Made by a program: the position numbers and the translations under genes | Assembly (NCBI RefSeq): GCF_010725725.1 | Contig: NZ_AP022599.1 | Coordinates: 3,224,001-3,288,000, forward strand | DNA: 64,000 nt | Source of the DNA: Mycolicibacterium pulveris | GTDB lineage: Bacteria > Actinomycetota > Actinomycetes > Mycobacteriales > Mycobacteriaceae | Direction of reading: 5' to 3' | Shown here: positions 15,181 to 26,077 of the stretch, piece after piece | Layout: each line of letters starts with the position of its first letter | Numbering within the stretch: position 1 is the first letter of the stretch | The notes under the pieces: generated by a model | Database searches by the model: none | The model's input: only the letters and a program-made list of their open reading frames with translations | Told to the model about the DNA's origin: nothing

Positions 15181-15205
15181 GTGCCCCCGGCAGGATTCGA
15201 ACCTG
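15181..15205. repeat. attL: attL core of the integrated element (25-bp direct repeat)
   Basis: These 25 bases are identical to 26004-26028, which are the last 24 bases of the tRNA-Arg gene (minus strand) plus one. The flanking bases differ on both sides (G versus A before, A versus C after), so 25 bp is the exact repeat. Here there is only the tRNA tail, no tRNA. Confidence 0.92.
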
Positions 15206-15325
15206 ACGAGTCATCCCAGTGTGACTAGTTCATCTACATGCGGTTTCTATGCTTCTACCGGCGGTTTCAGCACTTCCACCTACACGGCAGGATATTACAC
15301 TGTCGGACACTCCCGGACATAGATG

Positions 15326-15347
15326 TTGTGCAAATCTCGTGCAACAA
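15326..15347 (+). repeat. candidate integrase arm-type sites, left end
   Basis: Two tandem copies of TYGTGCAA start at 15326 and 15337, 11 bases apart (one helix turn), just before the integrase start. The composite TTGYGCRAATCTYGTGCA recurs in the same orientation at 25961-25978, close to attR. Confidence 0.55.
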
Positions 15348-15355
15348 TCAACGCC

Positions 15356-16462
15356 ATGGCGAGGAAGCGACGCGGGTTCGGACGTATCCGTCAGGAACGC
15401 TCGGGACGATGGTCGGCTGCATATTCCGGCCCTGACGGCAGGCTGCACCGCGCATCACGAACGTTCGTGAGCGAACATGATGCCGAAGGTTGGCTTGCGG
15501 GGGAGCGCCGCAAAATCGACCTCGGGACGTGGGGGGCGGTCGAACGCTCGGACGGGGTAACCCTCAAGGCGTACGCCCAGAAATGGCTGGCTGAACGGCG
15601 GGTAAAGGGGCAGCCGCTACGGCCACGAACAAGGGGGCTGTACGAGTCCCTGTTGGAGAGGCTTGTTTATCCCGACCTCGGCCACGTCCGCCTTGCCTCC
15701 CTCACCCCCGCACAAATCCGTACGTGGCACTCCAACCTGAGCGACCGGCCCACCCGTAATGCCCACTGTTACGCCTTGCTGCACGCCATCTGTCAAACCG
15801 CCGTGGCTGACGAGATCCTAGACGCGAACCCATGCCGAATCCGCTCGGCCATGAGCACGGAACGGAAACGAGACATTGAGGTGTTGACGCCGGCCGAGTT
15901 GGACAAGTTGGCGTCGAAAATGCCTGCCCCGCTACGGGCTTCAGTTCTCCTCGCCGCATTTTGCGGATTACGTTATGGGGAGACTTTCGAGCTGCGCAGG
16001 CGGAACGTGGCTGCGGATTGTTCCGTTCTGATGATTCGGCGGGGGGTGACGTACCGGTCGGGGGAGTTTCACGTCGGCCCGCCGAAAACGAAAAGCGGCA
16101 TCCGTGATGTGAGCGTGCCGCCACATCTCCGCCCAATGTTGAAGGCGCACCTACGGAATCATGTCGGTCGGGCAGGTGATTCCCTGCTCTTTCCCGACGC
16201 AGACGGGGGGCATTTGCGCGCCGACCGATACCGACCCCATTGGGAGAAGGCCCGTGCGGCCATCGGGAAACCTCACCTGCGGGTCCACGATCTGCGCCAC
16301 TGCGGTGCTGTGTGGGCTGCCCAATCGGGTGCCACCACGGCTGAACTGATGCACAGGTTGGGGCACGCCACACCACAGATGTCGGCCCGGTATTTGCATG
16401 TCGCGGAGGGGCGGGACGCCGAGATCGCCGAACGGTTGTCGAAACTTGCGGAAGGCACCTAA
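15356..16462 (+). CDS. int: tyrosine integrase
   Basis: A 368-residue site-specific tyrosine recombinase. A basic arm-binding N-terminus (ARKRRGFGRIRQERSGRW) is followed by a SAM-like core-binding domain (about 70-160) and the catalytic domain. Catalytic residues are visible: Arg206 in CGLRYGETFE, His311-x-x-Arg314 in HDLRH, His337 in HRLGHAT and Tyr346 in SARYLHV. I chose ATG 15356; an upstream ATG at 15323 would translate the arm repeats. It integrates and excises the surrounding element at tRNA-Arg(CCU). Confidence 0.93.
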   Translation: MARKRRGFGRIRQERSGRWSAAYSGPDGRLHRASRTFVSEHDAEGWLAGERRKIDLGTWGAVERSDGVTLKAYAQKWLAERRVKGQPLRPRTRGLYESLLERLVYPDLGHVRLASLTPAQIRTWHSNLSDRPTRNAHCYALLHAICQTAVADEILDANPCRIRSAMSTERKRDIEVLTPAELDKLASKMPAPLRASVLLAAFCGLRYGETFELRRRNVAADCSVLMIRRGVTYRSGEFHVGPPKTKSGIRDVSVPPHLRPMLKAHLRNHVGRAGDSLLFPDADGGHLRADRYRPHWEKARAAIGKPHLRVHDLRHCGAVWAAQSGATTAELMHRLGHATPQMSARYLHVAEGRDAEIAERLSKLAEGT

Positions 16463-16554
16463 CCCGTTCAACAACGCCGAACCACAACTTCCTCGGGTCG
16501 GTGGGCTCGCCTACTGCACGAAATACACGAGGCCCTGCCCCGCTACACAAACGG

Positions 16555-16564
16555 TGTGACCTGC
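16555..16564 (-). repeat. divergent copy of the element's GCAGGTCACA repeat
   Basis: TGTGACCTGC followed by A instead of G, about 110 bases upstream of the excisionase-like gene. It matches the longer form of the repeats clustered before the terminase gene (20091-20100). Confidence 0.35.
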
Positions 16565-16672
16565 ACGAGTAGCCTCGTTCACCCGGTTACGTCGGCATCT
16601 GGACCCGAAAGTGCTGGTGCGTCGCGGCATTCAGGGCGTTTTCTGTCCAGGGCACCCTTTACGTTGTTTCTC

Positions 16673-16870
16673 ATGTCCACAAACACCAAGCCCGCGAGGC
16701 TCATCACCATTACGCAGGCGGCCGAAATGCTCGCCGTCGATCCCCGAACTATCCGCCGATGGATCGCGCAGGGCCGCCTAAAGGCGCGCCGGATTGGGCC
16801 GAAACTCATCCGTGTCGAGTTGGCGTCGGTCGAGGCGATGGGCCAGCCGGTAGGGGGTGGGTCGCGATGA
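16673..16870 (+). CDS. xis: excisionase/AlpA-like helix-turn-helix protein
   Basis: A 65-residue DNA-binding protein of the HTH_17 (excisionase/MerR-like) class: LITITQAAEMLAVDPRTIRRW is the winged-helix recognition unit, then the wing IAQGRLKARRIGPKLIRV. In small prophages and satellites such a gene after the integrase is a recombination directionality factor or an AlpA-type activator. No ribosome site is visible before ATG 16673, but TACGTT (16660-16665) sits seven bases before it, so a leaderless transcript is possible. It overlaps the next gene by four bases. Confidence 0.8.
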   Translation: MSTNTKPARLITITQAAEMLAVDPRTIRRWIAQGRLKARRIGPKLIRVELASVEAMGQPVGGGSR

Positions 16871-17073
16871 AGAGACGGGTACGCACAGCGCAGGGAAAGG
16901 TCATAGTGTGCGAACTCAAGGATGGGCACATAGAGGTGTGGCCGCGGTGGCTCGATCCGATTGAGAACCCCGACCCTGACGTGCCAACTGTCTTGACGTT
17001 CGATGAAACAGAAGATCTGTATCAAACCTTGTTTCGCCTGCGCAGAATCGGCAAAGGCGAAGTGACGGAGTAG
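16867..17073 (+). CDS. small hypothetical protein of the integrated element
   Basis: A 68-residue protein starting at ATG 16867, which overlaps the xis-like stop (ATGA). The first half is basic (MKRRVRTAQGKVIVCELKDG), the second is acidic then basic. I do not recognise a family. The coupled start and the phage-like composition make it a real gene. It may be an early accessory of the excisionase. Confidence 0.6.
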   Translation: MKRRVRTAQGKVIVCELKDGHIEVWPRWLDPIENPDPDVPTVLTFDETEDLYQTLFRLRRIGKGEVTE

Positions 17074-17088
17074 CTTTCGTCAATGTTG

Positions 17089-17097
17089 TGATATACT
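17089..17097 (+). promoter_or_regulatory. extended -10 promoter for the early module
   Basis: TGATATACT fits an extended -10 (TGn TATACT) exactly, in a stretch (17080-17130) much richer in A/T than the surroundings. No good -35 is seen at 17 bases, as is common for extended -10 promoters. Transcription would start near 17104 and read into the ribbon-helix-helix and DUF3631 genes. Confidence 0.6.
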
Positions 17098-17105
17098 TAA
17101 CTTGC

Positions 17106-17153
17106 AAGGGATAGTGAATTCCCTTTTCTCCGTTCAGCAATCTGAAGCTGAAC
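17106..17153. promoter_or_regulatory. two inverted repeats in the early leader (candidate operator)
   Basis: AAGGGA (17106-17111)/TCCCTT (17120-17125) with an 8-base spacer, then GTTCAGC (17132-17138)/GCTGAAC (17147-17153), also with 8. They lie between the extended -10 and the ribbon-helix-helix gene. They could be operators for that protein or leader RNA hairpins. Confidence 0.45.
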
Positions 17154-17168
17154 CCCTCTGGAGCAGTA

Positions 17169-17300
17169 ATGGAAAGAACCCTTTTTATGAGGCTGCCTGC
17201 GTGGCTTGACGACAAGCTGCGGGAAAACGCCGACAAGCAGGCGACCGACCGGCAAGGCGTCGTGCGCGCACTTCTCGTGGAAAAACTCGGCGCGAAATGA
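17169..17300 (+). CDS. ribbon-helix-helix (CopG/Arc-like) DNA-binding protein
   Basis: A 43-residue protein. After MERTLFMRLPAWLDDKLREN (beta strand RTLFMRLP and helix A) comes helix B with VVRALLVEKLGAK, the complete ribbon-helix-helix fold. GGAG at 17160-17163 precedes ATG 17169. Such minimal proteins dimerise and bind palindromic operators, and two dyads lie just upstream, so this is the best candidate regulator of the element, which lacks any classical repressor (inference). It overlaps the next gene by ATGA. Confidence 0.7.
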   Translation: MERTLFMRLPAWLDDKLRENADKQATDRQGVVRALLVEKLGAK

Positions 17301-17464
17301 GCGTCAAGACTGGCCGGGTCAACGTGCGCGGCAAAACCATTCCAGTCGGATACCAATGCCCCGATTGCGATAACGACGTGCGCATCGTGCCGATGGGTGA
17401 AGGCGTCAGCGTCCTCCAGGTGATCCACGACGACACCTGCCCGTGGTTGGGGAAGCACAAGTGA
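17297..17464 (+). CDS. small zinc-binding-like protein of the integrated element
   Basis: A 55-residue protein starting at ATG 17297 within the stop of the previous gene. It carries YQCPDCDNDVRIVP, a CxxC knuckle, and HDDTCPWLGKHK near the end, giving a plausible Cys/Cys/His/Cys zinc site. I do not know the family. It is coupled to genes on both sides and so belongs to the early/replication module. Confidence 0.6.
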   Translation: MSVKTGRVNVRGKTIPVGYQCPDCDNDVRIVPMGEGVSVLQVIHDDTCPWLGKHK

Positions 17465-18714
17465 GCGCTACAGAAACCACATCCGCTACAGAAAACACGC
17501 CCGTGACCAGCGGCGTAGCGGACGTAGCGCTTGTAGCGGACATTACGGGGTGTGCCACCCTGGACCAGGTGTCCGCCTTTCTAGGCCGATTCATCGCCTA
17601 CCCCACAGACTATGCACGCGTGGCTCATGTCCTGTGGATCGCACACACTTACCGCATGGATGCGTGGGACTCCACCCCGCGCCTAGCATTCATGTCTACG
17701 GAGAAGGGGTCGGGAAAGACACGCGCACTTGAAGTGACGTATCACCTAGTGTCAGCGGGTCACCACGCGTCGAACGTATCGAACGCGTTCATCCTTGGTG
17801 CTATCGCCGATAACCCTTCAACGACAATTCTTCTCGATGAGATCGACACTGTTTACGGGCCTCGGGCGAAGGGCAACGAAGATCTCAGGTCAACTATCAA
17901 CTCTGGGCATCGCCGTGGCGGTGAGGCCGGCAGAGGATCTTGGGTTGACGGGACGATCAAAGCAACCCGGTTCAGTTCGTATTGCCCTGTAGCCCTCGCG
18001 GGTTTGGGCACCCTGCCCGAAACAGTCGCCGACCGCGCAGTGGTAATCCGTATGAAACGGCGCAAGCCCACTGACCACGTTGAGCCCTGGCGAGAACGAC
18101 TGAACGCGGACGAGGCGAGGGAACTCGCAAAGAAGCTTGAGACCTGGGTAACCAAAGCCCAATTCGACTACCCCGACAACATGCCCGTCACTGACCGCAA
18201 GGCCGATGTGTGGGAAGCCCTGGTGATGGTTGCCGACGCAGCGGGTGGGCATTGGCCGACTACGGCGCGACAGGCAGCCGTTGCGATGACTTCCGGCGAT
18301 GACTCCATGAGCGCGGGTGTTCGGCTTCTGCGCGACCTCCGGGAGGTGTTCGGCGACAAGAGGGAGATGTTCACCGCTGACATCCTTGAGGCGCTGCGCG
18401 ATCTCCCCGAGTCACCGTGGCGCGACCTCACAGACCGAAAGTTAGCGAAAGCCTTGGGCGACTATGACGTGAAGTCTCGTCAGATACGACGCGGGAAACG
18501 TGGATACCACGCATGTGACTTGTCGGACCCGTGGGAGCGGCACCTGCCCCCACACCCCCAAACAAGCGCTACAAGCGCTACAAGCGCTACACCGCAGGTC
18601 AGCCCCGGTGAAAACCGTAGCGCTTCGGATAGCAGTAGCGCTTGGATTAGCAGAGGTGAGCAACTCGCCCACAGCGGACGCTACCCCGCACGAGACCACG
18701 CGGCGAGCTTCTGA
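17461..18714 (+). CDS. DUF3631 ATPase (phage/satellite replication protein)
   Basis: A 417-residue P-loop ATPase. Walker A STEKGSGKTRALE has Lys86; Walker B TILLDEIDTVYG has Asp126-Glu127; IRMKRRKP near 200 fits an arginine finger region. The C-terminal half is DUF3631 (DRKADVWEALVMVADAAGGHWP). In mycobacterial prophage-like elements such proteins stand where primase-helicases are found. I chose GTG 17461, which has GGGGAAG five bases upstream and overlaps the previous stop; GTG 17443 is also open. Both ends of the gene contain repeated GTAGCG/CGCTAC DNA motifs. Confidence 0.85.
   Translation: MSATETTSATENTPVTSGVADVALVADITGCATLDQVSAFLGRFIAYPTDYARVAHVLWIAHTYRMDAWDSTPRLAFMSTEKGSGKTRALEVTYHLVSAGHHASNVSNAFILGAIADNPSTTILLDEIDTVYGPRAKGNEDLRSTINSGHRRGGEAGRGSWVDGTIKATRFSSYCPVALAGLGTLPETVADRAVVIRMKRRKPTDHVEPWRERLNADEARELAKKLETWVTKAQFDYPDNMPVTDRKADVWEALVMVADAAGGHWPTTARQAAVAMTSGDDSMSAGVRLLRDLREVFGDKREMFTADILEALRDLPESPWRDLTDRKLAKALGDYDVKSRQIRRGKRGYHACDLSDPWERHLPPHPQTSATSATSATPQVSPGENRSASDSSSAWISRGEQLAHSGRYPARDHAASF
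17464..17541. repeat. iteron-like GTAGCG/CGCTAC cluster, 5' end of DUF3631 gene
   Basis: Five copies in 78 bases: CGCTACAG at 17466 and 17484, GTAGCGGAC at 17515 and 17533, GTAGCGCTT at 17524. The copies run in both orientations inside the coding sequence, so the repetition is at the DNA level. Confidence 0.6.
18562..18643. repeat. iteron-like AGCGCTACA array, 3' end of DUF3631 gene
   Basis: Three exact tandem copies of ACAAGCGCT (18562-18588, 9-bp period), a TGACCTGCG-family repeat (CGCAGGTCA, 18593-18601), then two inverted copies GTAGCGCTT at 18617 and 18635. The same core occurs at the other end of the gene. Confidence 0.6.
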
Positions 18715-18716
18715 CC

Positions 18717-18992
18717 GTGAAGACATACCGGCTGCACCGCTGCGACCGAAACCACAAGCAGCACGACGCCTTTATGCGCTGCGCGTATCCGAAGGCCGCA
18801 ATAAGCGGTGAGGGCCAATTCGCGGTCATATCGCGATGCACACGTCCCCATGTCATCACGCTCTACACCAATCCGGCTGCGGCGCAAGAAGACGTGGACG
18901 CGCTCGTGTGTGACGGGCTGTGTGTCTTCGATCACGAAGTGGTGCACCTCGACTTGAACCACCAACAGAACTGGAAGCACACCCATGTCTAA
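18717..18992 (+). CDS. hypothetical protein of the integrated element
   Basis: A 91-residue protein, start GTG 18717 two bases after the DUF3631 stop. Rich in His and Cys (RLHRCDRNHKQHDAFMRCAY, SRCTRPHVITLYT, DHEVVHLDLNHQQNWKHTHV), which suggests metal binding, but no known family is recognised. It overlaps the next gene by eight bases. Confidence 0.55.
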   Translation: MKTYRLHRCDRNHKQHDAFMRCAYPKAAISGEGQFAVISRCTRPHVITLYTNPAAAQEDVDALVCDGLCVFDHEVVHLDLNHQQNWKHTHV

Positions 18993-19200
18993 TTCTGTCT
19001 TCAGCGACACTGTGAAGCGCGAAGACATGCGACACCTGGTCGCAGCGTCGACGCACTACCTCGGCCACAACATCTATGCACTCCGCTGCCAGTCAGCAGA
19101 CGGCGAACTGCGCAACTACCTATTAGATGCGCCATCATTCGAGCACTTGAGAACTATGGTCGAGAGCGCCCTAATAGCAGGTATGGACGATCTCAGTTGA
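18985..19200 (+). CDS. hypothetical protein of the integrated element
   Basis: A 71-residue acidic protein (MSNSVFSDTVKREDMRHLV ... SFEHLRTMVESALIAGMDDL). Predicted mainly helical with a central strand pair. No family is recognised. The overlap with the preceding gene supports it as the last gene of the early operon. Confidence 0.5.
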   Translation: MSNSVFSDTVKREDMRHLVAASTHYLGHNIYALRCQSADGELRNYLLDAPSFEHLRTMVESALIAGMDDLS

Positions 19201-19222
19201 TCCAAGCATCGGGCCGAACGGT

Positions 19223-19411
19223 TCAGCCGTTGATCCAGGTGCCGACGATCTCGAAGCACTCGGGATCCCGACAACGCCACTCGGTGCCAGGAACCGGGTC
19301 GCTCGACTGCAATAGCGGCATGTCGTTTCGCCTGGACAGCAGGTCATGCCTATGGCAGACAGGGCACTCTTCTTCGGCGGATTCGGTTTCCACCCAAGTT
19401 GATCCAATCAT
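19223..19411 (-). CDS. small zinc-ribbon protein on the opposite strand
   Basis: A 62-residue protein on the strand opposite to the rest of the element's core. It contains EEECPVCHRHDLLSRRN (CxxCxxH) and EWRCRDPECFEIVGTW (CxxxxC), a four-ligand zinc ribbon. ATG 19411 is preceded by AAAGGAAC ten bases away. The opposite frame has no motif. It may be an accessory gene with its own promoter. Confidence 0.55.
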   Translation of the reverse strand: MIGSTWVETESAEEECPVCHRHDLLSRRNDMPLLQSSDPVPGTEWRCRDPECFEIVGTWING

Positions 19412-19510
19412 TGGGGGTTAGTTCCTTTCGAACGTACTTTCGGTGATTTCGAGGCTACCGATTTGCCCCGACATGCAGTGGTTTGACACGCAAGAAAAGA
19501 GGAATGCCGC

Positions 19511-19879
19511 GTGAGCCTGCCACGGCCCTGTATCGGCTGTGGAGAGCCAATCCCCAACGGGTCAAGGTGTTCTGACTGCCAGCCCAAACGCATCAAGCCC
19601 AGAGGCCACCGAGACGCACGCTGGGACCGACTGTCCAAAAGGCTACGCAAGGCAAGCCCGATGTGCGAGCAGTTAGGTTGCGGCGCAACAACCGACCTCA
19701 CCGTCGACCACATCATCCCGCTGACAGAGTCACCCGAGCTGGCGCACGAACCCCTCAACTGTCGGGTTTTGTGTCGCAGGCACAACGCGATGCGCCAGGA
19801 CCACTGCACTGATGAGGAGCGGGAGGCTGTGTTGGCTGCCATCGCTGCCCGCAAGGCACGCCGCGCCCGCATGGCCTGA
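19511..19879 (+). CDS. HNH endonuclease (packaging associated)
   Basis: A 122-residue HNH nuclease. The N-terminus has a zinc knuckle (CIGCGEPIPNGSRCSDC, Cys7/10/20/23). The core is TVDHIIPLTESPE with Asp66-His67, NCRVLCRRHN with Asn83, His91 and Asn92, and structural Cys52/57/84/88. The GTG start at 19511 follows AAAGAGGA. HNH proteins beside the terminase of cos-type phages are needed for end cutting and packaging. Here it lies directly before a repeat cluster and terL, in the usual order, and no separate small terminase is seen. Confidence 0.88.
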   Translation: MSLPRPCIGCGEPIPNGSRCSDCQPKRIKPRGHRDARWDRLSKRLRKASPMCEQLGCGATTDLTVDHIIPLTESPELAHEPLNCRVLCRRHNAMRQDHCTDEEREAVLAAIAARKARRARMA

Positions 19880-19889
19880 ACCGCATCGC

Positions 19890-20121
19890 CGCAGGTCACA
19901 GCGGTGACGCTGCCAAGGTGCTCCTGCACCGCTCAGCACGTTTCCGCAGGTCACATAGTTGCGGGGATTTCACCCCGTCTGACCTGCGCAAACACAACCG
20001 CTACTTGGACGTGGGGGGTGCCCCTGACCTGCGAAAAGGCCGGACACGTTCGCCAAGCGCACTCCCAGGTTAATTGGGTTCCCTACGTGTTGTGACCTGC
20101 GGCTTCGGAAATTGACCTGCG
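19890..20121. repeat. cluster of six TGACCTGCG repeats before terL (candidate packaging or control site)
   Basis: The gap between HNH and terL has no gene but holds six exact TGACCTGCG copies: inverted (CGCAGGTCA) at 19890 and 19945, direct at 19980, 20025, 20093 and 20113. The first two and last four face each other. The two inverted copies share a 12-base form CCGCAGGTCACA exactly 55 bases apart. The last copy touches the terL start. Confidence 0.75.
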
Positions 20122-20124
20122 GGA

Positions 20125-21624
20125 ATGCCGCCCCTGCTTAAGGAATGGCTTGTGACTGTTCGTGGACCTAAGGGTCCGGTCGATACGTCGCCGCTGCCGT
20201 TTCGCAGTAAGGCTGGCGAGTCGGAGACTGACAGGTTCGCCAGGTGGTGCAGGAAGTTCCTGACGGTGCCGAAGGGCAATGGCGTCGGTGCTCCGTTCCG
20301 GTTGCGGGACTGGCAGATCCAGATGCTGCGCCCGTTCCTCGACCCCGATCCGCGCCCGGTTGTCGGAGCAATAATGGGGCCCCGGGGCCTTGGCAAGACG
20401 GCGCTTTTCGCGGCGCTCGGAGCGTACTCCGCTTTTGAGGGGCCGGATGGCAACGAGATCCCGATTGTTGCCGTGGATGAGCGGATGGCGCTGCGTTTGT
20501 TGAAGCCCGCCATGCAGATGGTCGAGTTGAACGAAGAACTCTCGTCGAGAGCTGTCGTTTACCGGGACCGGATCGAGATTACGGGTAAGCGATCGGTCCT
20601 GATGGCGCTTCCGGCTGAGGCGAAACGTATTGAGGGTTTGGGTACTTGGACTCTGGCCTTAGCGGACGAGTTGGGCGAGATTGATCCGGATACGTGGTCA
20701 ACACTGCTGCTAGGTGCTGGGAAGCTCGACGGGGCGATGGCGTTGGGCATCGGAACCCCGCCGAATCGGGAAACGTCTGTTCTGACGGACATTCGGGATG
20801 CTGTGCGGGCGAACCCTGACGACAAGACGATGGCTTTTGTCGAGTTTTCGGCTGACGGTTTCCAGCATCATCCGGCGAGCTGTGTCCACTGTCTTGAGGC
20901 GGCGAATCCTCAGCTTGACGATCTGTTGAGCAGGGATCGCGCTACAGCGTTGTTGAAGCAGACAACGGAGGGCGAGTACCGGCGGAAACGGCTGTGTCAG
21001 GTCGTCACGACGAATGAAGCCCCGTTCGTCCCGGCTGACGTGTGGGACGGGCTAGCGACTGGTGTGGGTATCCCTGACGGTGCTGAGGTGGTTGTCGCGC
21101 TTGATGGTTCGCACTCATCCGACACCACGGCGCTGCTAGTCGGGTCTATATGTCCGACCCCGCATTTTGACACCATACGGGTGTGGGCCAATTCCGGTGA
21201 CTCCGACTGGCGGGTGCCGGTGTTGGAGGTTGAGGACGCGATACGGGACGCCTGTAGGCGATGGAAGGTGAAAGAGGTTGTTGCCGACCCGTTCCGGTGG
21301 ACCCGCACCTTGCAGGTTTTGCAGCAAGAGGGAATCCCGATCACCGAGTTCCCACATTCGCCTAGTCGCTTGACCGCTGCAACGACGGACCTACATCGGG
21401 CAATCGTTAACGAGCAGATCAGTCACAGCGGCGACGAGACTCTCACGCGGCATGTGATGGCTGCGACTGTCATCGAGTCCGATAAGGGTTTGCGGCTGGG
21501 GAAGGTCTCTCGTAGTAGGAGTGCCGAAAAGATCGACCTTGCAGCCTGTTTAGTCATGGCGCACTCGCGCGCCACGTGGCTTGCCACCAGACCGAAGAAG
21601 AAAGCTAGAGCGTACTCGTTTTGA
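20125..21624 (+). CDS. terL: phage terminase large subunit
   Basis: A 499-residue packaging motor. The ATPase domain has Walker A GPRGLGKTA (Lys91) and Walker B WTLALADELGEI (Asp181-Glu182). The C-terminal RNase H-like nuclease begins at VVVALDGSHSSDTTALLVG (catalytic Asp near 315) and continues through VVADPFRWTR and EKIDLAACLVMAH. Length and domain order are normal and no disruption is seen. The ATG at 20125 directly follows the last TGACCTGCG repeat; GCGGGA may act as a ribosome site. The stop overlaps the TTG start of the portal gene. Confidence 0.93.
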   Translation: MPPLLKEWLVTVRGPKGPVDTSPLPFRSKAGESETDRFARWCRKFLTVPKGNGVGAPFRLRDWQIQMLRPFLDPDPRPVVGAIMGPRGLGKTALFAALGAYSAFEGPDGNEIPIVAVDERMALRLLKPAMQMVELNEELSSRAVVYRDRIEITGKRSVLMALPAEAKRIEGLGTWTLALADELGEIDPDTWSTLLLGAGKLDGAMALGIGTPPNRETSVLTDIRDAVRANPDDKTMAFVEFSADGFQHHPASCVHCLEAANPQLDDLLSRDRATALLKQTTEGEYRRKRLCQVVTTNEAPFVPADVWDGLATGVGIPDGAEVVVALDGSHSSDTTALLVGSICPTPHFDTIRVWANSGDSDWRVPVLEVEDAIRDACRRWKVKEVVADPFRWTRTLQVLQQEGIPITEFPHSPSRLTAATTDLHRAIVNEQISHSGDETLTRHVMAATVIESDKGLRLGKVSRSRSAEKIDLAACLVMAHSRATWLATRPKKKARAYSF

Positions 21625-22982
21625 CCCCTGACATTTTGGTCACCCACCTTCAAGCCCTGGACGGACCACAGCACACCTACGCCCAGTTACGCAACTACTA
21701 CGAGGGTCAGGCACCGCTGTCGTTTCTCAGCGCTGAACAGAAAGTGGCGCTGAAGAACTTTGACCGAGTGAGCGCCAATGTGTGCCGCACCGCCATCCTC
21801 AGCATCCAGGAACGCCTCAGAGTGTGCGGGCTAGGTGACGCCTTTGATTTGTACCTTTCCAATAATCTCGATCAGCGCAGCGCCCAGGTCCACCGTGATG
21901 CCCTTCTGTACGGTCCCGGCTACGTGTTGTGCTGGACCGATCAGCGGGGTCGGCCCACCGCCACCGTTGAATCACCACAAACCCTTGTGGTGCAGCGTGA
22001 CCCGATCACTGGTGAACTGGTGTCGGCCTGTAAACGGGTCTACACGAAGACGACGACTGAGGCGTGGCTGTATCTGCCCGATGAGATCCGCCACTACCGC
22101 GCCGACAATCCCGGCGCTGCCTCGGCGGGATTCAATCTTGTCGACAGCGTTGAGAATCCGTTGGGCACTCCGCCGGTCGCTGTGATCGGGCATGAGGACG
22201 AACCGAGCGCGATAGCTGATCTGGTCAGCGGCCTTCAGGACGGGCTAAATAAGGCTCTACTCGACGGTCTGTGTGCTTCTGAGGCCGCCGCTTTTCCCCG
22301 CCGCGCCGTGTCGGGGTTATCGCCCGAGGAACGCCCGGTACTCGATGACGAGGGCAACCCGGTGATCGAGGCTGGCGAACCGGTCGTAGAACTGGTCAAC
22401 CCGCTATCTGAGGACCGGATGAAGGTATGGCTCGCAGAGTCCCCCGAAACGAAGTTCACCCAGCTTAGCGCCGCCGACCTCGCCGCTTTCGAGGCGTTGG
22501 TGAGGGTCATTCTTGCGCAGTGCATGATGGTTACCGGCTTGCCGGCCCACTATTTAGGCCAGTTGACCGCTGCGGCTCAGCCGACGAGCGCCGACGCCTT
22601 GCGTGCTTCTGAAGCCGCGCTGGTGGCCCGCTGCGAGGCCTACCAGCTACTCTACGGAACCGGCTGGGAACGGGTAGGGAAACTACTGCTGGCTATCCGT
22701 GATGGCGGGGACCCCGAAGAGATCGACGTCAAAGTGTCGTGGAGTCCCGCCGATACCCGCTCCACCGCCCAGGAGGCGGACGCTGTGGTCAAGTTGGTTC
22801 AAGCCGACATTCTTCCGGTGACCTACGCGCTGAAAAAGCTGGGCTATTCCGCGGATGAGATCGCAGAGATTCAGACTGCCCGCCGCGACGACATGCAGCT
22901 TGGCGAAGACGCCAAAGTCTATTCCTATCTCGGGGCCGTGAGCCGCACGAGAACGTTCGAATCCACCGACGCAGTAAGGTAA
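21621..22982 (+). CDS. phage portal protein (SPP1 gp6-like)
   Basis: A 453-residue portal protein of the Gp6-like family: LRNYYEGQAPLSFLSAEQ at the start, RDALLYGPGYVLCW near 90, a stretch with PVAVIGHEDEPSAIADLVSG near 185, and the TGLPAHYLGQLTAAAQPTSA loop and helix near 310 that line the channel. TTG 21621 overlaps the terL stop (TTGA), so translation is coupled. Portals form the dodecameric ring through which DNA enters the capsid. Complete and intact. Confidence 0.9.
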   Translation: MTPDILVTHLQALDGPQHTYAQLRNYYEGQAPLSFLSAEQKVALKNFDRVSANVCRTAILSIQERLRVCGLGDAFDLYLSNNLDQRSAQVHRDALLYGPGYVLCWTDQRGRPTATVESPQTLVVQRDPITGELVSACKRVYTKTTTEAWLYLPDEIRHYRADNPGAASAGFNLVDSVENPLGTPPVAVIGHEDEPSAIADLVSGLQDGLNKALLDGLCASEAAAFPRRAVSGLSPEERPVLDDEGNPVIEAGEPVVELVNPLSEDRMKVWLAESPETKFTQLSAADLAAFEALVRVILAQCMMVTGLPAHYLGQLTAAAQPTSADALRASEAALVARCEAYQLLYGTGWERVGKLLLAIRDGGDPEEIDVKVSWSPADTRSTAQEADAVVKLVQADILPVTYALKKLGYSADEIAEIQTARRDDMQLGEDAKVYSYLGAVSRTRTFESTDAVR

Positions 22983-22986
22983 CCCA

Positions 22987-23457
22987 TTGCCAGACACCAC
23001 AAATAACGCCCCCATTCAAACGCAGGGCGACGAAACGACGGAGCCCGAGGCGACCACACCCGAGGCGGAACCCATTGCGGCAGAGACGCCATCAGAGTCG
23101 AATACGGCTGAATCGCAGGATGATACGGCGTTCTCTCGTGAATACGTCGAGAAGCTTCGTAAAGAGTCCGCCGGATACCGTGACCGAGCCAAGAGCGCCG
23201 AGACCCGCGTAGACGAGTTATCCCGCCAACTGTTCACAGCCAAAGTCGCCGCAACCGGGAAGCTGGCCGACGCCACCGATCTCGAATACAACCCCGAATT
23301 ACTTGATGATGACGATGCCCTTTCGGCGGCGATAGATGCGCTGACCGAATCTAAACCTCATCTCAAGGCCCGCAAGGTGACCGGTGATGTGGGACAAGGT
23401 GATCGGGGCAAGCCCGAGGAAGCCTTTTCGTTACTCAAAGCCCTAAAGGGTCTGTGA
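22987..23457 (+). CDS. scaffold-like capsid assembly protein
   Basis: A 156-residue acidic protein lying between portal and capsid, the normal place of a scaffold. Residues 1-45 are a low-complexity Glu/Thr/Pro tail. Residues 50-85 form a predicted coiled coil (FSREYVEKLRKESAGYRDRA). The C-terminal end is basic (KALKGL). It starts with TTG 22987, with AAGG about eight bases upstream. No protease motif is visible, so head maturation appears to use a separate scaffold without a prohead protease. Confidence 0.75.
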   Translation: MPDTTNNAPIQTQGDETTEPEATTPEAEPIAAETPSESNTAESQDDTAFSREYVEKLRKESAGYRDRAKSAETRVDELSRQLFTAKVAATGKLADATDLEYNPELLDDDDALSAAIDALTESKPHLKARKVTGDVGQGDRGKPEEAFSLLKALKGL

Positions 23458-23570
23458 GATAATAGATTCAGGAAGTCCGGTACTTCCGCGATCTTTCCGG
23501 CCTGACGCCGATCCCATTCCTAAGCCTGACGCTTAGATCCACTTTCGTTAATTCATAAGGATATTCATTC
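23458..23570 (+). promoter_or_regulatory. capsid gene leader with small dyads
   Basis: Contains GAGATAAT (possible -10) near 23456-23463, the dyad GGAAGT-CCGGT-ACTTCC (23472-23488), TAAGC-CTGAC-GCTTA (23521-23534), and an A/T-rich stretch ending in AAGGATATTCATTC before the capsid ATG. A separate capsid promoter is plausible. Confidence 0.4.
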
Positions 23571-24449
23571 ATGGCCATTGAGGTCACTTCTGGCAACACT
23601 ACGTTGCTTCAATCCCAGGTTGCGAATCTTCTGGTACAGCCGCTGGAACAAATGTCGACGTTCCTTGCTGCCGGCCCGCAGATTTTCGACACCAATCAGC
23701 AGTTGCGCATCCCGCGTATCGCCTCGGGTGTGACCGCGGGCTTCGTCGGCGAAGGCGCACAAATCTCTGACGGTGATGTGTCTTTCGATGAGGTCACGCT
23801 GCTGCCGTCCACGCTCAAGAGCTTGAAGGTGCTTGTCAGGTTCTCCAATGAGATGGCCCGACAGAGCGTTGTGGCGCTTGAGGCCACGCTGCGGACCCGG
23901 CTTGTCACTGATGTTGCCAACGCACTGGATGCCGCCCTGTGGGACGGTGCTGGCACGTCCAACACCATTAAGGGCATTTTGCGGGCTAGCGGCATCGCCA
24001 CCGGCACGCTCGATCTGGCTGATGCAGATTCGTTGATCGACGGCATGGCTACTGCGCAGGGCAACCACGTCACCCCGACACATTGGGTGATGACCTCTGC
24101 CAGCTTTGCCGCCTTGCGCAAGCTGAAGATCGCCGTACCCGACGAGACCAACGGCGTCGCCACCTACAGTCAATACCTGTTTGACCCCAGCGGCATTCAG
24201 AACGGCACCGCGTTCCAACTGTTCGGCCTGCCTGTCATCATCACCGACAACATTCCCGCCGTATCGACGAAGAACCGTGTGGCCCTGGTAGACATGTCCA
24301 AGGTGGCGGTGGCCCGCGACGTGGACGCCGAAGTCAAGATTCTCGACCAGACGTGGGGCGACTACGATTCCATCGGTATCCGTGTCGTGACCCGCTATGA
24401 CGTGGCGCTTCTGCAAGACGAGGCCGTCACGCTGCTGACCGAGGCCTAA
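23571..24449 (+). CDS. major capsid protein, HK97 fold
   Basis: A 292-residue capsid protein. The family pattern is clear: an N-terminal arm with LLVQPLEQMSTFLAAGPQIF, RIPRIASGVTAGFVGEGAQI, the spine-helix region VRFSNEMARQSVVALEATLR, ALDAALWDGAG, and a C-terminal P-domain with FGLPVIITDNIPA and IRVVTRYDVALL. It has its own leader with small dyads and an AAGGA ribosome site ten bases from ATG 23571, consistent with high expression. Complete, with no sign of decay. Confidence 0.92.
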   Translation: MAIEVTSGNTTLLQSQVANLLVQPLEQMSTFLAAGPQIFDTNQQLRIPRIASGVTAGFVGEGAQISDGDVSFDEVTLLPSTLKSLKVLVRFSNEMARQSVVALEATLRTRLVTDVANALDAALWDGAGTSNTIKGILRASGIATGTLDLADADSLIDGMATAQGNHVTPTHWVMTSASFAALRKLKIAVPDETNGVATYSQYLFDPSGIQNGTAFQLFGLPVIITDNIPAVSTKNRVALVDMSKVAVARDVDAEVKILDQTWGDYDSIGIRVVTRYDVALLQDEAVTLLTEA

Positions 24450-24451
24450 GA

Positions 24452-24769
24452 ATGGCTGCCCCAACGTATTCCGATCTAGGGGCACTGCTGGGGACTCCCG
24501 TTACTGCCGAACAGGGTGGAGCAGCCCTGTCGGTGGTGACGGCGATGGCCAGCGCATACACGCGCGGGCACGGTTTCGAAGACGGCATACCAAACACTGA
24601 TATTGAAGCTGTCATAAAGACCGCAGCCTGCCGCTTGCTGTCCAACCCCAGCGGGCTTTTGCGGGATGAAACCCACGGCCCCGAATCGGTTTCGTACCGT
24701 TCATCGTTTACGGGATGGTCGGTGGCGGAGCGAATCGTCCTAGACCGGTACCGGGTGAAAGCCCTGTGA
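24452..24769 (+). CDS. head-tail connector (adaptor) protein
   Basis: A 105-residue, mostly helical protein following the capsid gene after two bases. The pattern (YSDLGALLGTPVTAEQGGAA, helices around AVIKTAACRLLSNPSGLLRD, a C-terminal SVAERIVLDRYR) is that of gp6/gp15-like adaptors binding under the portal. It overlaps the next gene by a GTGA. Confidence 0.8.
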   Translation: MAAPTYSDLGALLGTPVTAEQGGAALSVVTAMASAYTRGHGFEDGIPNTDIEAVIKTAACRLLSNPSGLLRDETHGPESVSYRSSFTGWSVAERIVLDRYRVKAL

Positions 24770-25080
24770 TCGCGCAGGTTCATAGCGTCGAACGCGACCA
24801 GTTCGGGGATCCCATCGAAACACCGCAAGGGACAATAGATGTCATCCCCGGCGGTTTATCCGTGGCCCCATTGCTGGATGCAGTGACAGTCACCTCGGGC
24901 CAGATCGGCATCCGGCGCGGCACAACCTCAACCGGCCATGAGCTTGAAGAGGGCGACAAAATCACGCTCCCCACTGGGTACAGGTATGCGTTGCAGGGTC
25001 CTCCGTTATGGGATTACCCGTCGAACCTCACCGGCACCGAGTTCGCGTACCGGTGGTGGCGGGTCGCGCAGTCCAATTAG
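24766..25080 (+). CDS. head-closure (stopper) protein
   Basis: A 104-residue all-beta protein starting at GTG 24766, overlapping the adaptor stop. Short strands such as QVHSVERDQFGDPIETPQGT and LEEGDKITLPTGYRYALQGP resemble the beta-barrel head-closure proteins that seal the filled capsid and receive the tail. Position and size fit. It is the last virion-like gene with a structural match; no tail gene follows. Confidence 0.65.
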   Translation: MIAQVHSVERDQFGDPIETPQGTIDVIPGGLSVAPLLDAVTVTSGQIGIRRGTTSTGHELEEGDKITLPTGYRYALQGPPLWDYPSNLTGTEFAYRWWRVAQSN

Positions 25081-25109
25081 CCGCCGAAAACGTAAGGGAT
25101 ACAGCACCT

Positions 25110-25262
25110 ATGCCTAGAAAAATGCCCAAGCCGCTCGACCCGCGCAAACTGCGGGAAGCCGCCAAGGACGCCTTCGGCCCTCCCAAGGCTGGCAGGAACA
25201 AGCCGAGGCCGCGCATCAGGCTCAAGCCCCCGCCGCGTGTGAGGCGTCGCCGCACGCGATAA
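25110..25262 (+). CDS. small highly basic protein
   Basis: A 50-residue protein rich in Lys, Arg and Pro (MPRKMPKPLDPRKLREAAKD, RIRLKPPPRVRRRRTR). TAAGGGA lies about ten bases before ATG 25110. Nucleic-acid binding or capsid interior packing is possible. No family is recognised. It is the last plus-strand gene of the element. Confidence 0.6.
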   Translation: MPRKMPKPLDPRKLREAAKDAFGPPKAGRNKPRPRIRLKPPPRVRRRRTR

Positions 25263-25271
25263 ATAGAGACA

Positions 25272-25317
25272 ACCGCTGAGTTTATAGGGCCATTACCTCC
25301 CTGGGCGGCTCAGCGGT
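25272..25317. terminator. inverted repeat after the head genes
   Basis: ACCGCTGAG (25272-25280) and CTCAGCGGT (25309-25317) pair perfectly around a 28-base loop that holds a smaller AGGG/CCCT stem. It lies ten bases after the last plus-strand gene of the element; no U-tract follows. Confidence 0.45.
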
Positions 25318-25446
25318 AGGCGCGCCGGGGTTCTGGCTTCCCTGCGCTGCGCCGGGGGTCGATCATTCTCGCGCGTGATCGGCCCCGCCAAACTTTCTAC
25401 GGTTGTCACGCACACCTGTGCGATTTGCCGATGCCGTAGACAGAAA

Positions 25447-25481
25447 CAACCCCCCTTCCGAGCCATGCGGGAGGGGGGTTG
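25447..25481 (-). terminator. strong hairpin terminator between convergent genes
   Basis: CAACCCCCCTTCC and GGGAGGGGGGTTG form a 13-bp stem with one G-T pair and a 9-base loop. Read leftwards it is followed by TTTCTG, so it probably ends the minus-strand gene at 25495. It may also stop the head-gene transcript. Confidence 0.7.
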
Positions 25482-25494
25482 CTCTCGTTGGTGA

Positions 25495-25923
25495 CTAGTG
25501 GGGGAAGCCGTGGAAACAGGAAGCCGATTCTTCACCGGTCTGCACCCGCCCGTCGTCGTCACACAACGGACACGCCACCTGGGCCGCGAAAATGAGGCAA
25601 TCAGCGAAGGCGTCCGTTGGCATCGGCGGGGCACCCTCCAGCGCCTCTAACTCTGCGGGGTCGGCCTCTCGCACGGCGATGGCCGCTGCAACGGCTTCCC
25701 TCGGTGTGAGCGGATCCTCTAGGCCGTCTACGACGATTAGGCCGCGTTCGATGCTGCCGTCGCGGCGCTGCACCCCCCAGACGGAGATGACGGCGGGAAC
25801 ACCCGGCGGTCCGAGGTATGGCCCGCTGTAGAGCCTGAGCCCGTCTGTCCCCCAGTCGCCGACGTTTCTCGCGTGCGGGGGTGGAGGTACATCGTGGTTC
25901 GTGCTGTCAACGGTTGCGGTCAT
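25495..25923 (-). CDS. hypothetical accessory protein next to attR
   Basis: A 142-residue protein on the minus strand. The frame is open back into the tRNA, but ATG 25923 has a perfect AGGAGG six bases upstream, so I start there. A disordered start (DVPPPPHARN) leads into a beta-rich part (LRLYSGPYLGPPGVPAVISV, RGLIVVDGLEDPLTPREAVA) and ends in a CxxC segment (ACPLCDDDGRVQTGE, SCFHGFP). The middle recalls small actinophage proteins of unknown role. It has its own strong translation start and terminator, as cargo genes at the edge of prophages and satellites often have. Confidence 0.65.
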   Translation of the reverse strand: MTATVDSTNHDVPPPPHARNVGDWGTDGLRLYSGPYLGPPGVPAVISVWGVQRRDGSIERGLIVVDGLEDPLTPREAVAAAIAVREADPAELEALEGAPPMPTDAFADCLIFAAQVACPLCDDDGRVQTGEESASCFHGFPH

Positions 25924-25960
25924 GGTGCCTCCTAGGTTGGAGTCACACCGAAACGACCAG

Positions 25961-25978
25961 TTGCGCGAATCTTGTGCA
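25961..25978 (+). repeat. candidate integrase arm-type sites, right end
   Basis: TTGCGCGAATCTTGTGCA differs from 15326-15343 in only three of 18 positions, same orientation and same 11-base period of two half-sites. It lies 25 bases left of the attR core. Confidence 0.55.
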
Positions 25979-25990
25979 GAGACACGTTTG

Positions 25991-25999
25991 CGCAGGTCA
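25991..25999 (-). repeat. CGCAGGTCA repeat beside attR
   Basis: An exact copy of the repeat clustered before terL, placed four bases before the attR core and next to the right arm-type site. Confidence 0.5.
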
Positions 26000-26003
26000 A
26001 ACA

Positions 26004-26028
26004 GTGCCCCCGGCAGGATTCGAACCTG
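26004..26028. repeat. attR: attR core of the integrated element (25-bp direct repeat)
   Basis: Identical to 15181-15205. It covers the acceptor 3' strand, T loop and most of the T stem of the tRNA-Arg(CCU) gene. Integration here keeps the tRNA intact, as usual for tyrosine integrases using tRNA 3' ends. Confidence 0.92.
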
Positions 26029-26077
26029 CGACACCGGCTTTAGGAGAGCCGTGCTCTATCCCCTGAGCTACGAGGGC
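26005..26077 (-). tRNA. tRNA-Arg (anticodon CCU)
   Basis: A 73-base cloverleaf read on the minus strand. The acceptor stem GCCCTCG/CGGGGGC has one G-T pair, D arm GCTC/GAGC, anticodon stem CGGCT/AGCCG with loop CTCCTAA (anticodon CCU at 26042-26044), T arm GCAGG TTCGAAT CCTGC, and discriminator A. No CCA is encoded. The 3' end is the integration site of the neighbouring element. Confidence 0.95.

What the first reader, a model, noticed from the sequence alone, without database searches (positions are those of the whole stretch)
15181..26028. Compact head-only element: candidate capsid-forming phage satellite in tRNA-Arg(CCU)
Between exact 25-bp att repeats lies a 10.85-kb unit with integrase, excisionase/AlpA-like HTH, RHH protein, DUF3631 ATPase, HNH, terL, portal, scaffold, capsid, adaptor and stopper. 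All head genes are full length, yet there is no tail tube, tape measure, baseplate, lysin, holin or CI-like repressor, and no space for them. Intact heads plus no tails is what capsid-forming phage-inducible islands show: they package their own DNA and borrow tails from a helper. phiRv1/phiRv2 of M. tuberculosis have a related compact plan. The alternative is a once larger prophage that lost its right half, but the precise att ends and undamaged genes argue against it.
Basis: partly seen in the sequence, partly recalled or inferred. Interest (0 to 1): 0.88.

Follow-up and report, generated by a model that had tools for sequence, protein, structure and literature searches.

The report
Head-making, tail-borrowing mycobacterial phage satellite
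This 10.8-kb piece of a mycobacterial chromosome looks like a complete phage satellite that builds its own virus head, packs its own DNA and probably takes its tail from a helper phage; it belongs to a widespread mycobacterial group of such elements.

Summary
An exact 25-bp repeat (15181-15205, 26004-26028) bounds 10,848 bp at the 3' end of tRNA-Arg(CCU), with integrase, HTH_17 protein, DUF3631 protein, HNH, TerL, portal, probable scaffold, capsid, adaptor and stopper; no tail or lysis gene was recognised. Of 46 distinct att-bounded family members (window included), 42 are 10.07-11.38 kb, and 41 have the repeat in a tRNA or tmRNA gene. In 137 family loci (redundant, some cut by contig ends) 26 tail, lysis and neighbouring phage proteins gave one hit, outside the element. 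So this is a conserved satellite plan, not one truncated prophage. A related genome has the site unoccupied; another holds a 10.7-kb relative at the same core. The element ends where a tailed phage goes on into tail genes. The stopper changes type often along the capsid tree; the window's type hits only Mycobacterium phages, the four looked up being Mclasvirinae, which suggests a helper type. Candidate mycobacterial PICIs are already described (PMC10654092), so this is a new member of a known kind. No head protease or small terminase was recognised. Mobilisation is untested.

The parts
15181..15205 (.). left att core (25 bp)
   Evidence: exact repeat of 26004-26028
26004..26028 (.). right att core, 3' end of tRNA-Arg(CCU)
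26004..26077 (-). tRNA-Arg (anticodon CCU), intact
15323..16462 (+). tyrosine integrase, 379 aa (start codon uncertain)
   Evidence: PF00589 1e-14, phrog_1 1e-60; 70% identical integrase in L157, same core
16673..16870 (+). HTH_17 / AlpA- or excisionase-like protein
   Evidence: PF12728 9e-11, phrog_66 6e-10 for the longer ORF from 16556; start chosen by me
16867..17073 (+). small hypothetical protein
   Evidence: ORF read from the sequence
17169..17300 (+). 43-codon ORF, possible ribbon-helix-helix protein
   Evidence: read from the sequence; no family search run
17297..17464 (+). small hypothetical protein, 55 aa
   Evidence: ORF
17443..18714 (+). DUF3631 protein with P-loop, probable replication helicase
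   Evidence: PF12307 3e-46; P-loop read from the sequence; 41% relative in locus L185
18564..18643 (.). AAGCGCTAC repeats (5 copies), possible origin iterons
   Evidence: local 9-mer cluster; 1 of 60 first-order Markov controls reached 5
18717..18992 (+). hypothetical protein
   Evidence: ORF; no PHROG, no Pfam match above cut-off
18985..19200 (+). hypothetical protein
   Evidence: ORF; no family; 34% match over 41 residues in L024
19511..19879 (+). HNH endonuclease next to the terminase
   Evidence: PF01844 2e-5, phrog_144 5e-13
19890..20121 (.). six CGCAGGTCA repeats (both orientations) between HNH and TerL, possible packaging-start site
   Evidence: 6 copies; 60 Markov controls reached at most 5; coordinates rechecked; motif enriched in this gap in other loci
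20125..21624 (+). terminase large subunit
   Evidence: phrog_9 3e-65
21621..22982 (+). portal protein
   Evidence: PF05133 7e-26, phrog_104 2e-82
22987..23457 (+). probable scaffolding protein
   Evidence: phrog_233 1.4e-3; conserved position in relatives
23571..24449 (+). major capsid protein, HK97 type
   Evidence: PF05065 1e-33
24452..24769 (+). head-to-tail adaptor
   Evidence: phrog_442 3e-4; family profile finds Douge adaptor 8zdj_a, E 8e-6
24766..25080 (+). head-to-tail stopper, last head gene
   Evidence: phrog_10309 1e-11 for the longer ORF from 24715; 32 Mycobacterium phage records; profile finds 8zdj_M, E 4e-26; model matches 8zdj_M, TM 0.77
25110..25262 (+). small basic protein, 50 aa
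   Evidence: ORF read from the sequence; no family for the longer ORF from 25008
25495..25923 (-). opposite-strand gene at the right end, 142 aa, unknown
   Evidence: ORF; no family for the longer ORF

Best explanation
It is an integrated phage satellite that makes its own heads. Shown by sequence: exact att ends in a tRNA gene, a head and packaging operon, no recognised tail or lysis gene, and many relatives with the same plan and size. Inferred: the integrase, helped by the HTH_17 protein, excises it when a helper phage is active. The DUF3631 protein copies it, perhaps from the AGCGCTAC repeats. Portal, scaffold and capsid build a small head. TerL with HNH packs the element, perhaps starting at the CGCAGGTCA repeats upstream of terL. 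Adaptor and stopper close the head, and a helper siphophage supplies tail and lysis. The stopper resembles those of Mclasvirinae mycobacteriophages, so a phage with that kind of tail is the likeliest helper.
For: Exact att ends and intact tRNA. Head operon. Of 46 distinct att-bounded elements, 42 are 10.07-11.38 kb, median 10,765.5 bp, with different integrases in different tRNAs. No tail family among the PHROG and Pfam matches of 53 ORFs right of the capsid in the first 20 bounded elements, nor among the families displayed for 67 other ORFs of these elements. One of 137 family loci hit any of 26 tail, lysis and neighbouring reference proteins, and that hit lies outside the element. The site is unoccupied in G013; L157 has the same core, a 70% identical integrase and 10.7 kb. 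In prophage prophi86-1 the genes run adaptor, stopper, hypothetical, tail terminator, major tail protein; this element stops after the stopper. Stopper hits: 32 of 32 records are Mycobacterium phages, while the listed capsid hits are of other hosts.
Against: Nothing shows excision, packaging or transfer. No small terminase was recognised and the HNH-TerL repeats are only a candidate site. The stopper match is about 33-35% identity in the 15 rows listed, and the two other stopper types tested had no match in phage records, so the helper inference is not general. The resident tailed prophage of this genome showed no stopper match. Stopper type is not free of the capsid tree: 26 changes against 33.0 in shuffles. 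The tail reference set is narrow and many of its 137 loci are cut or lack att ends; displayed only 25 of 45 and 25 of 84 families. Some relatives are damaged: four rows carry a stop within the TerL match.
Confidence: 0.85

Rival explanations
1. It is a prophage that lost its tail and lysis half and is now a remnant.
For: Head genes alone could be left after one deletion; locus L010 suggests that decay exists in the family (no TerL and only a short portal match although about 8 kb upstream is held); four rows have a stop within the TerL match.
Against: Narrow size over 46 elements in many tRNA sites with different integrases; no tail hit inside an element among 137 family loci nor in 11 looser loci; head genes undamaged in the window.
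Confidence: 0.06
2. It is a satellite of this family that no longer moves in this strain (compatible with the main reading of what it is).
For: No recognised repressor or small terminase; mobilisation not tested; Abad 2023 says that induction of mycobacterial candidates by phages has not been demonstrated.
Against: All core frames are open, att cores are identical, tRNA intact.
Confidence: 0.25
3. It is a gene-transfer-agent-like or domesticated head cluster kept by the host for another use.
For: Heads without tails are compatible with domestication.
Against: Own integrase, att ends, patchy distribution (TerL hits in 77 of 297 genus genomes, distant classes included) and an unoccupied site in a relative mark a mobile element; gene transfer agents normally keep tails (recalled).
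Confidence: 0.02

Closest known systems
Candidate Mycobacterium PICIs (Abad et al. 2023, PMC10654092)
   Same: Integrase plus capsid in small islands, some with terminase, scaffold and replication genes and some in tRNA genes; same host group (section 9 read).
   Different: There defined only as integrase plus capsid; here ends, size class, absence of recognised tail genes and changes of stopper type are measured. Whether this very element is in their data set was not checked.
Capsid-forming PICIs (cf-PICIs)
   Same: Own capsid, portal, connectors, TerL and HNH; only tails taken from the helper (as described in PMC10690885).
   Different: No head maturation protease (a probable scaffold instead) and no recognised small terminase. 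Sequences of published cf-PICIs were not compared; the primary paper was not found among held papers.
Streptomyces satellites MulchRoom / MiniFlayer (PMC10690885)
   Same: TerL, portal, scaffold, capsid, adaptor and HNH; MulchRoom also has a tyrosine integrase, no detected tail genes and helper-length tails (passages).
   Different: Those encode a small terminase, lack known primases, have direct terminal repeats and parasitise virulent helpers; MiniFlayer has a tail fibre gene and no integrase module.
phiRv1 / phiRv2 of M. tuberculosis
   Same: Small PICI-like mycobacterial elements with capsid genes (PMC10654092).
   Different: Homology to this element not tested here; phiRv1 uses a serine recombinase (a title in the reference list of PMC10654092).
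Mclasvirinae mycobacteriophages (prophi86-1, Bongo, PegLeg, Rey, MrMagoo)
   Same: Gene order portal, scaffold, capsid, adaptor, stopper in prophi86-1; stopper about 33-36% identical in listed rows; subfamily.
   Different: About 80-kb genomes; prophi86-1 goes on into tail genes. The window's adaptor has no phage match and none of the listed capsid matches is a Mycobacterium phage.

Membership tests
Candidate Mycobacterium PICI (Abad 2023) | integrase and major capsid protein in one phage-like region | tested here: met
Candidate Mycobacterium PICI (Abad 2023) | not an intact prophage and not nucleotide-similar to intact phages | tested here: inconclusive
   no tail genes recognised; capsid, TerL and portal under 60% protein identity to every phage record hit. 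No nucleotide search was run
cf-PICI | major capsid protein, portal and head-tail connectors | tested here: met
cf-PICI | large terminase and HNH endonuclease | tested here: met
cf-PICI | small terminase subunit | tested here: inconclusive
   no clear TerS; TerS profiles match the HTH_17 protein (phrog_57, E 1e-7) below excisionase profiles, and one weakly the HNH protein (E 6e-3)
cf-PICI | head maturation protease | tested here: not met
   no protease family in the ORFs scanned; a probable scaffold stands in its place
cf-PICI | no tail genes; tails come from a helper | tested here: inconclusive
   no tail gene recognised; use of helper tails not tested
cf-PICI | induction and transfer by a helper phage | not testable with these tools
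   needs experiment
Mulch/Flayer satellites | capsid and packaging module without primase and with direct terminal repeats | tested here: inconclusive
   integrated element with att ends and a DUF3631 protein of probable replication role; ends of packaged DNA not testable

The most novel reading that the evidence does not exclude
A satellite-only lineage of Mycobacteriales that has long kept its head genes while exchanging one small gene, the stopper, that docks the head onto the helper's tail, so that helper choice is written in about 105 residues. The window copy is set for Mclasvirinae-type tails. A sister class has gone further and carries its own tape measure, so it would dictate the length of the tail it borrows.
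Probability: 0.35. Interest if true: 0.72.

Novelty: new member of a known kind. Interest (0 to 1): 0.52.

Why it matters
Mycobacterial candidate satellites have been listed by gene content; in the listings of my literature searches I saw no report of a helper for one. This element has clean ends, intact genes, a relative with the site unoccupied and a stopper that points to phages which grow on M. smegmatis, so tail borrowing becomes directly testable in a laboratory strain. If stopper exchange sets helper range, one gene would explain how these satellites move between helper phages.

Tried and rejected
Deletion remnant: rejected as the main reading, see rivals. Chance repeat: rejected, exact 25 bp at a tRNA 3' end and the same layout in dozens of relatives. 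One common packaging repeat for the family: only partly supported. In 97 distinct loci without the window GCAGGTCA is 3.6 times denser upstream of terL than elsewhere (26 hits, 0.32 per kb, against 98 hits, 0.090 per kb), but only 4 of the 97 have two or more copies there; one search shows other repeats or none in other elements. The motif came from the window itself. Resident helper by stopper match: none in the tailed prophage at 0-57 kb. Stopper types B and C against phages: no match. DUF3631 and capsid against solved structures: no match. A first capsid and stopper label set missed all type C elements through a coordinate fault and was replaced; 134 capsids were reduced to 101 distinct ones, and 16 rows of unknown stopper state were dropped before the tree. 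The 46 elements include 5 whose repeat is not at a tRNA (L003, L006 with only 15 bp, L022, L160, L163); loci with only 16-17-bp repeats, and L153 (22 bp, not at a tRNA), were left out. Of 83 TerL rows above 100 bits besides the window's own, 70 were fetched; the other 13 were not in that count. A genus-wide search for the tape measure did not complete.
Full report
WHAT IS THERE. The window is G000:C1:3224001-3288000 of a 5.48-Mb single-contig genome. The 25-bp repeat is exact at 15181-15205 and 26004-26028; the right copy is the 3' end of the only tRNA found in the window, tRNA-Arg(CCU). From left to right the unit holds an integrase, an HTH_17 protein, small ORFs, a DUF3631 protein, HNH, TerL, portal, probable scaffold, capsid, adaptor and stopper, then a short basic ORF and one gene on the opposite strand. 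No tail, lysis or CI-like family was recognised among the window ORFs scanned.

HEAD-TAIL BORDER. A profile of nine stopper relatives finds the stopper of mycobacteriophage Douge (8zdj, gp10) at E 3.7e-26. The AlphaFold2 model (mean pLDDT 85.6) matches the same chain by Foldseek at E 1.2e-6, TM 0.77. The adaptor family profile finds the Douge adaptor at E 8.4e-6. Passages of the Douge paper (PMC13033339) put the stopper ring between the adaptor and the terminator, which sits on the tail tube. In prophi86-1 (Mclasvirinae) the order is portal, MuF, scaffold, capsid, adaptor, stopper, hypothetical, terminator, major tail protein. The window element stops after the stopper.

RELATIVES. A scan of genome contigs with the capsid gave 27 loci at 68-85% identity; 24 of 27 record titles name mycobacterial genera or Mycobacteriaceae, three only uncultured actinobacteria. 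TerL was found in 24 of 27; L009 and L015 are cut by contig ends, L010 looks decayed. IMG/VR gave 50 loci: 49 at 61-87% and one at 24%; contigs are 4.1-18.5 kb. A TerL search of 297 genus genomes hit 77, distant classes included. Of the 83 TerL rows above 100 bits besides the window's own I fetched stretches around 70: 58 (L124-L181) share the portal family and 12 (L182-L193) are a second class. After removal of 12 duplicates, 46 att-bounded elements remain: 42 of 46 measure 10.07-11.38 kb, median 10,765.5 bp, and four are 12.9, 13.2, 13.8 and 16.2 kb. By my own count over, 41 of 46 repeats overlap tRNA genes (12 isotypes) or tmRNA. Detected integrases are mostly 23-47% identical to the window's, while capsids can be 70-85% identical. 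L157 has a 70% identical integrase, the same 25-bp core in tRNA-Arg and a 10,707-bp span.

NO TAILS FOUND. PHROG and Pfam scans of 53 ORFs right of the capsid in the first 20 bounded elements found connectors, one head closure protein, four PHROGs without a function, one weak integrase match and cargo-type Pfam families. For 67 of 104 representatives of the other non-core ORFs, the displayed families are replication, regulation and excision types or unnamed; 25 of 45 PHROGs and all 11 Pfam families were shown. In 20 further loci, mostly without clear att, 94 ORFs gave 84 PHROGs, of which the 25 shown include no tail family. As a second test, 26 reference proteins (tail, closure, lysis and some unnamed neighbours) from Rebel, prophi86-1 and the resident prophage were searched against 137 family loci, a redundant set with cut contigs: one hit, in L136, outside its att-bounded unit. 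In the same search 8 of 12 class-2 loci gave tape-measure hits, so the test can find such genes. The 16.2-kb L024 carries DUF433, PIN-like and DUF2971 genes. Among looser relatives, L208 (other genus) and L210 (other family), with capsids of 47-49% identity, span 10.4 and 9.5 kb between att copies; L209 has no att found; L213-L215 and L218, with 23-29% capsids, span 8.5-10.3 kb. The 26 proteins hit none of L208-L218.

SITE. In G013 the left-flank gene match and the single core copy at tRNA-Arg(CCU) are about 0.4 kb apart: an unoccupied site, though beyond the tRNA the right flank did not match. In G002 two cores are 15.9 kb apart with an integrase 28% identical to the window's between them and both flanks matched, so the site is used by other elements too.

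STOPPER CHANGES. Directly after the adaptor stands type A (the window's), B or C, or none that was recognised. A is not clearly related to B or C (best E about 0.01), while B and C are weakly related (2.5e-7). On a quick tree of 85 capsids the four states need 26 changes; the least possible is 3, shuffles average 33.0 and 0 of 200 were as low, so stopper type partly follows the capsid but changes often. Well-supported branches alone force at least 7 changes for A, 5 for B and 6 for C. Changes to or from 'none' may be losses or missed genes. The window is the only type A in its clade of 8. The window's stopper hits 32 phage records, all Mycobacterium, and that of L024 hits 38, all Mycobacterium; Bongo, PegLeg, Rey, MrMagoo and prophi86-1 are Mclasvirinae, the others were not looked up. 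Types B and C hit none. The adaptor hits none, capsid and TerL hit only distant phages, and the portal hits 2346 records, all under 60% identity. This fits a head lineage of its own with an exchangeable tail dock; it does not prove it.

CANDIDATE CONTROL SITES. CGCAGGTCA occurs six times in 19890-20121, twice more in the element (18593, 25991) and once elsewhere in the window. In 60 first-order Markov controls the largest local count of any 9-mer was 5, once. AAGCGCTAC occurs five times at 18564-18643 in the 3' part of the DUF3631 gene. The first is my candidate packaging start, the second my candidate origin; both are inference.

KNOWN OR NEW. Abad et al. 2023 (PMC10654092; abstract, passages and section 9 read) describe candidate Mycobacterium PICIs by integrase plus capsid, with terminase and scaffold genes in some, and say that induction by phages has not been demonstrated. 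PMC10690885 (passages) gives the cf-PICI gene list used in the membership test. PMC11389934 and PMC10023795 were seen in passages; the latter suggests that many actinobacterial elements under 15 kb may be satellites. The primary cf-PICI paper was not found (one search lists 10 of 18 papers holding its title words) and PMC10085698 is not held. In the listings of searches I saw no report of a helper for a mycobacterial satellite or of stopper exchange; unread papers and papers not held may differ. Verdict: a new member of a known kind, with an unusually clean and testable anatomy.

SECOND CLASS. Class-2 loci have TerL 27-30% identical to the window's. L183 (17.0 kb between att copies at tRNA-Leu) has a weak HNH match, an AAA/helicase-like protein, head closure, a 1143-aa ORF matching tape measures, a neck-type connector, TerL, portal, protease, a capsid by position, adaptor and integrase. 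No major tail protein or lysis gene was recognised. The window's own genome has a similar cluster at about 3.517-3.527 Mb with a 1122-aa tape measure, about 42% identical to those of Rebel-like phages, but no tRNA, clear att or integrase was found in 60 kb around it. L187 of this class has an integrase stretch 73% identical to the window's.

Noticed in passing
L183 (G039:C1:1742140-1762139), att span from 465, 17,033 bp; also L192 (18,320 bp): Compact att-bounded elements with head genes and a tape measure match but no recognised major tail, baseplate or lysis gene: possibly satellites that set the length of the tail they borrow.
   Followed up: partly
L189 (window's genome, C1:3516795-3526713): Second head cluster in the same genome: adaptor, capsid, protease, portal, TerL, neck-type protein and a 1122-aa tape measure; no clear integrase or att found in 60 kb, perhaps a remnant.
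   Followed up: partly
L224-L226 (window's genome, C1:1-60000): A tailed prophage: 1842-aa ORF with a tape-measure match, a stretch 77% identical to the endolysin of phage Rebel, holin match; possible resident helper, but without a stopper match.
   Followed up: partly
L212 (window's genome, C1:4198631-4199437): A third capsid-like protein, 24% identical to the window's; its stretch matched none of the head or tail references.
   Followed up: no
L122 (G002:C1:3133000-3151500): The tRNA-Arg(CCU) site next to the same flank gene holds a 15.9-kb occupant with a different integrase: an integration hotspot.
   Followed up: partly
L213, L214, L215, L218: 8.5-10.3-kb att-bounded elements with a distant capsid (23-29%) and no TerL match: perhaps another satellite type with different packaging genes.
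   Followed up: no
L024, 12164-18163: The 16.2-kb family member carries cargo: DUF433, a PIN-like protein and a DUF2971 protein among its right-hand ORFs (the members matched are inferred from the ORFs' length and order).
   Followed up: partly
L045, L048, L049, L073: Type A stopper-like genes lie upstream of the capsid gene instead of after the adaptor.
   Followed up: no
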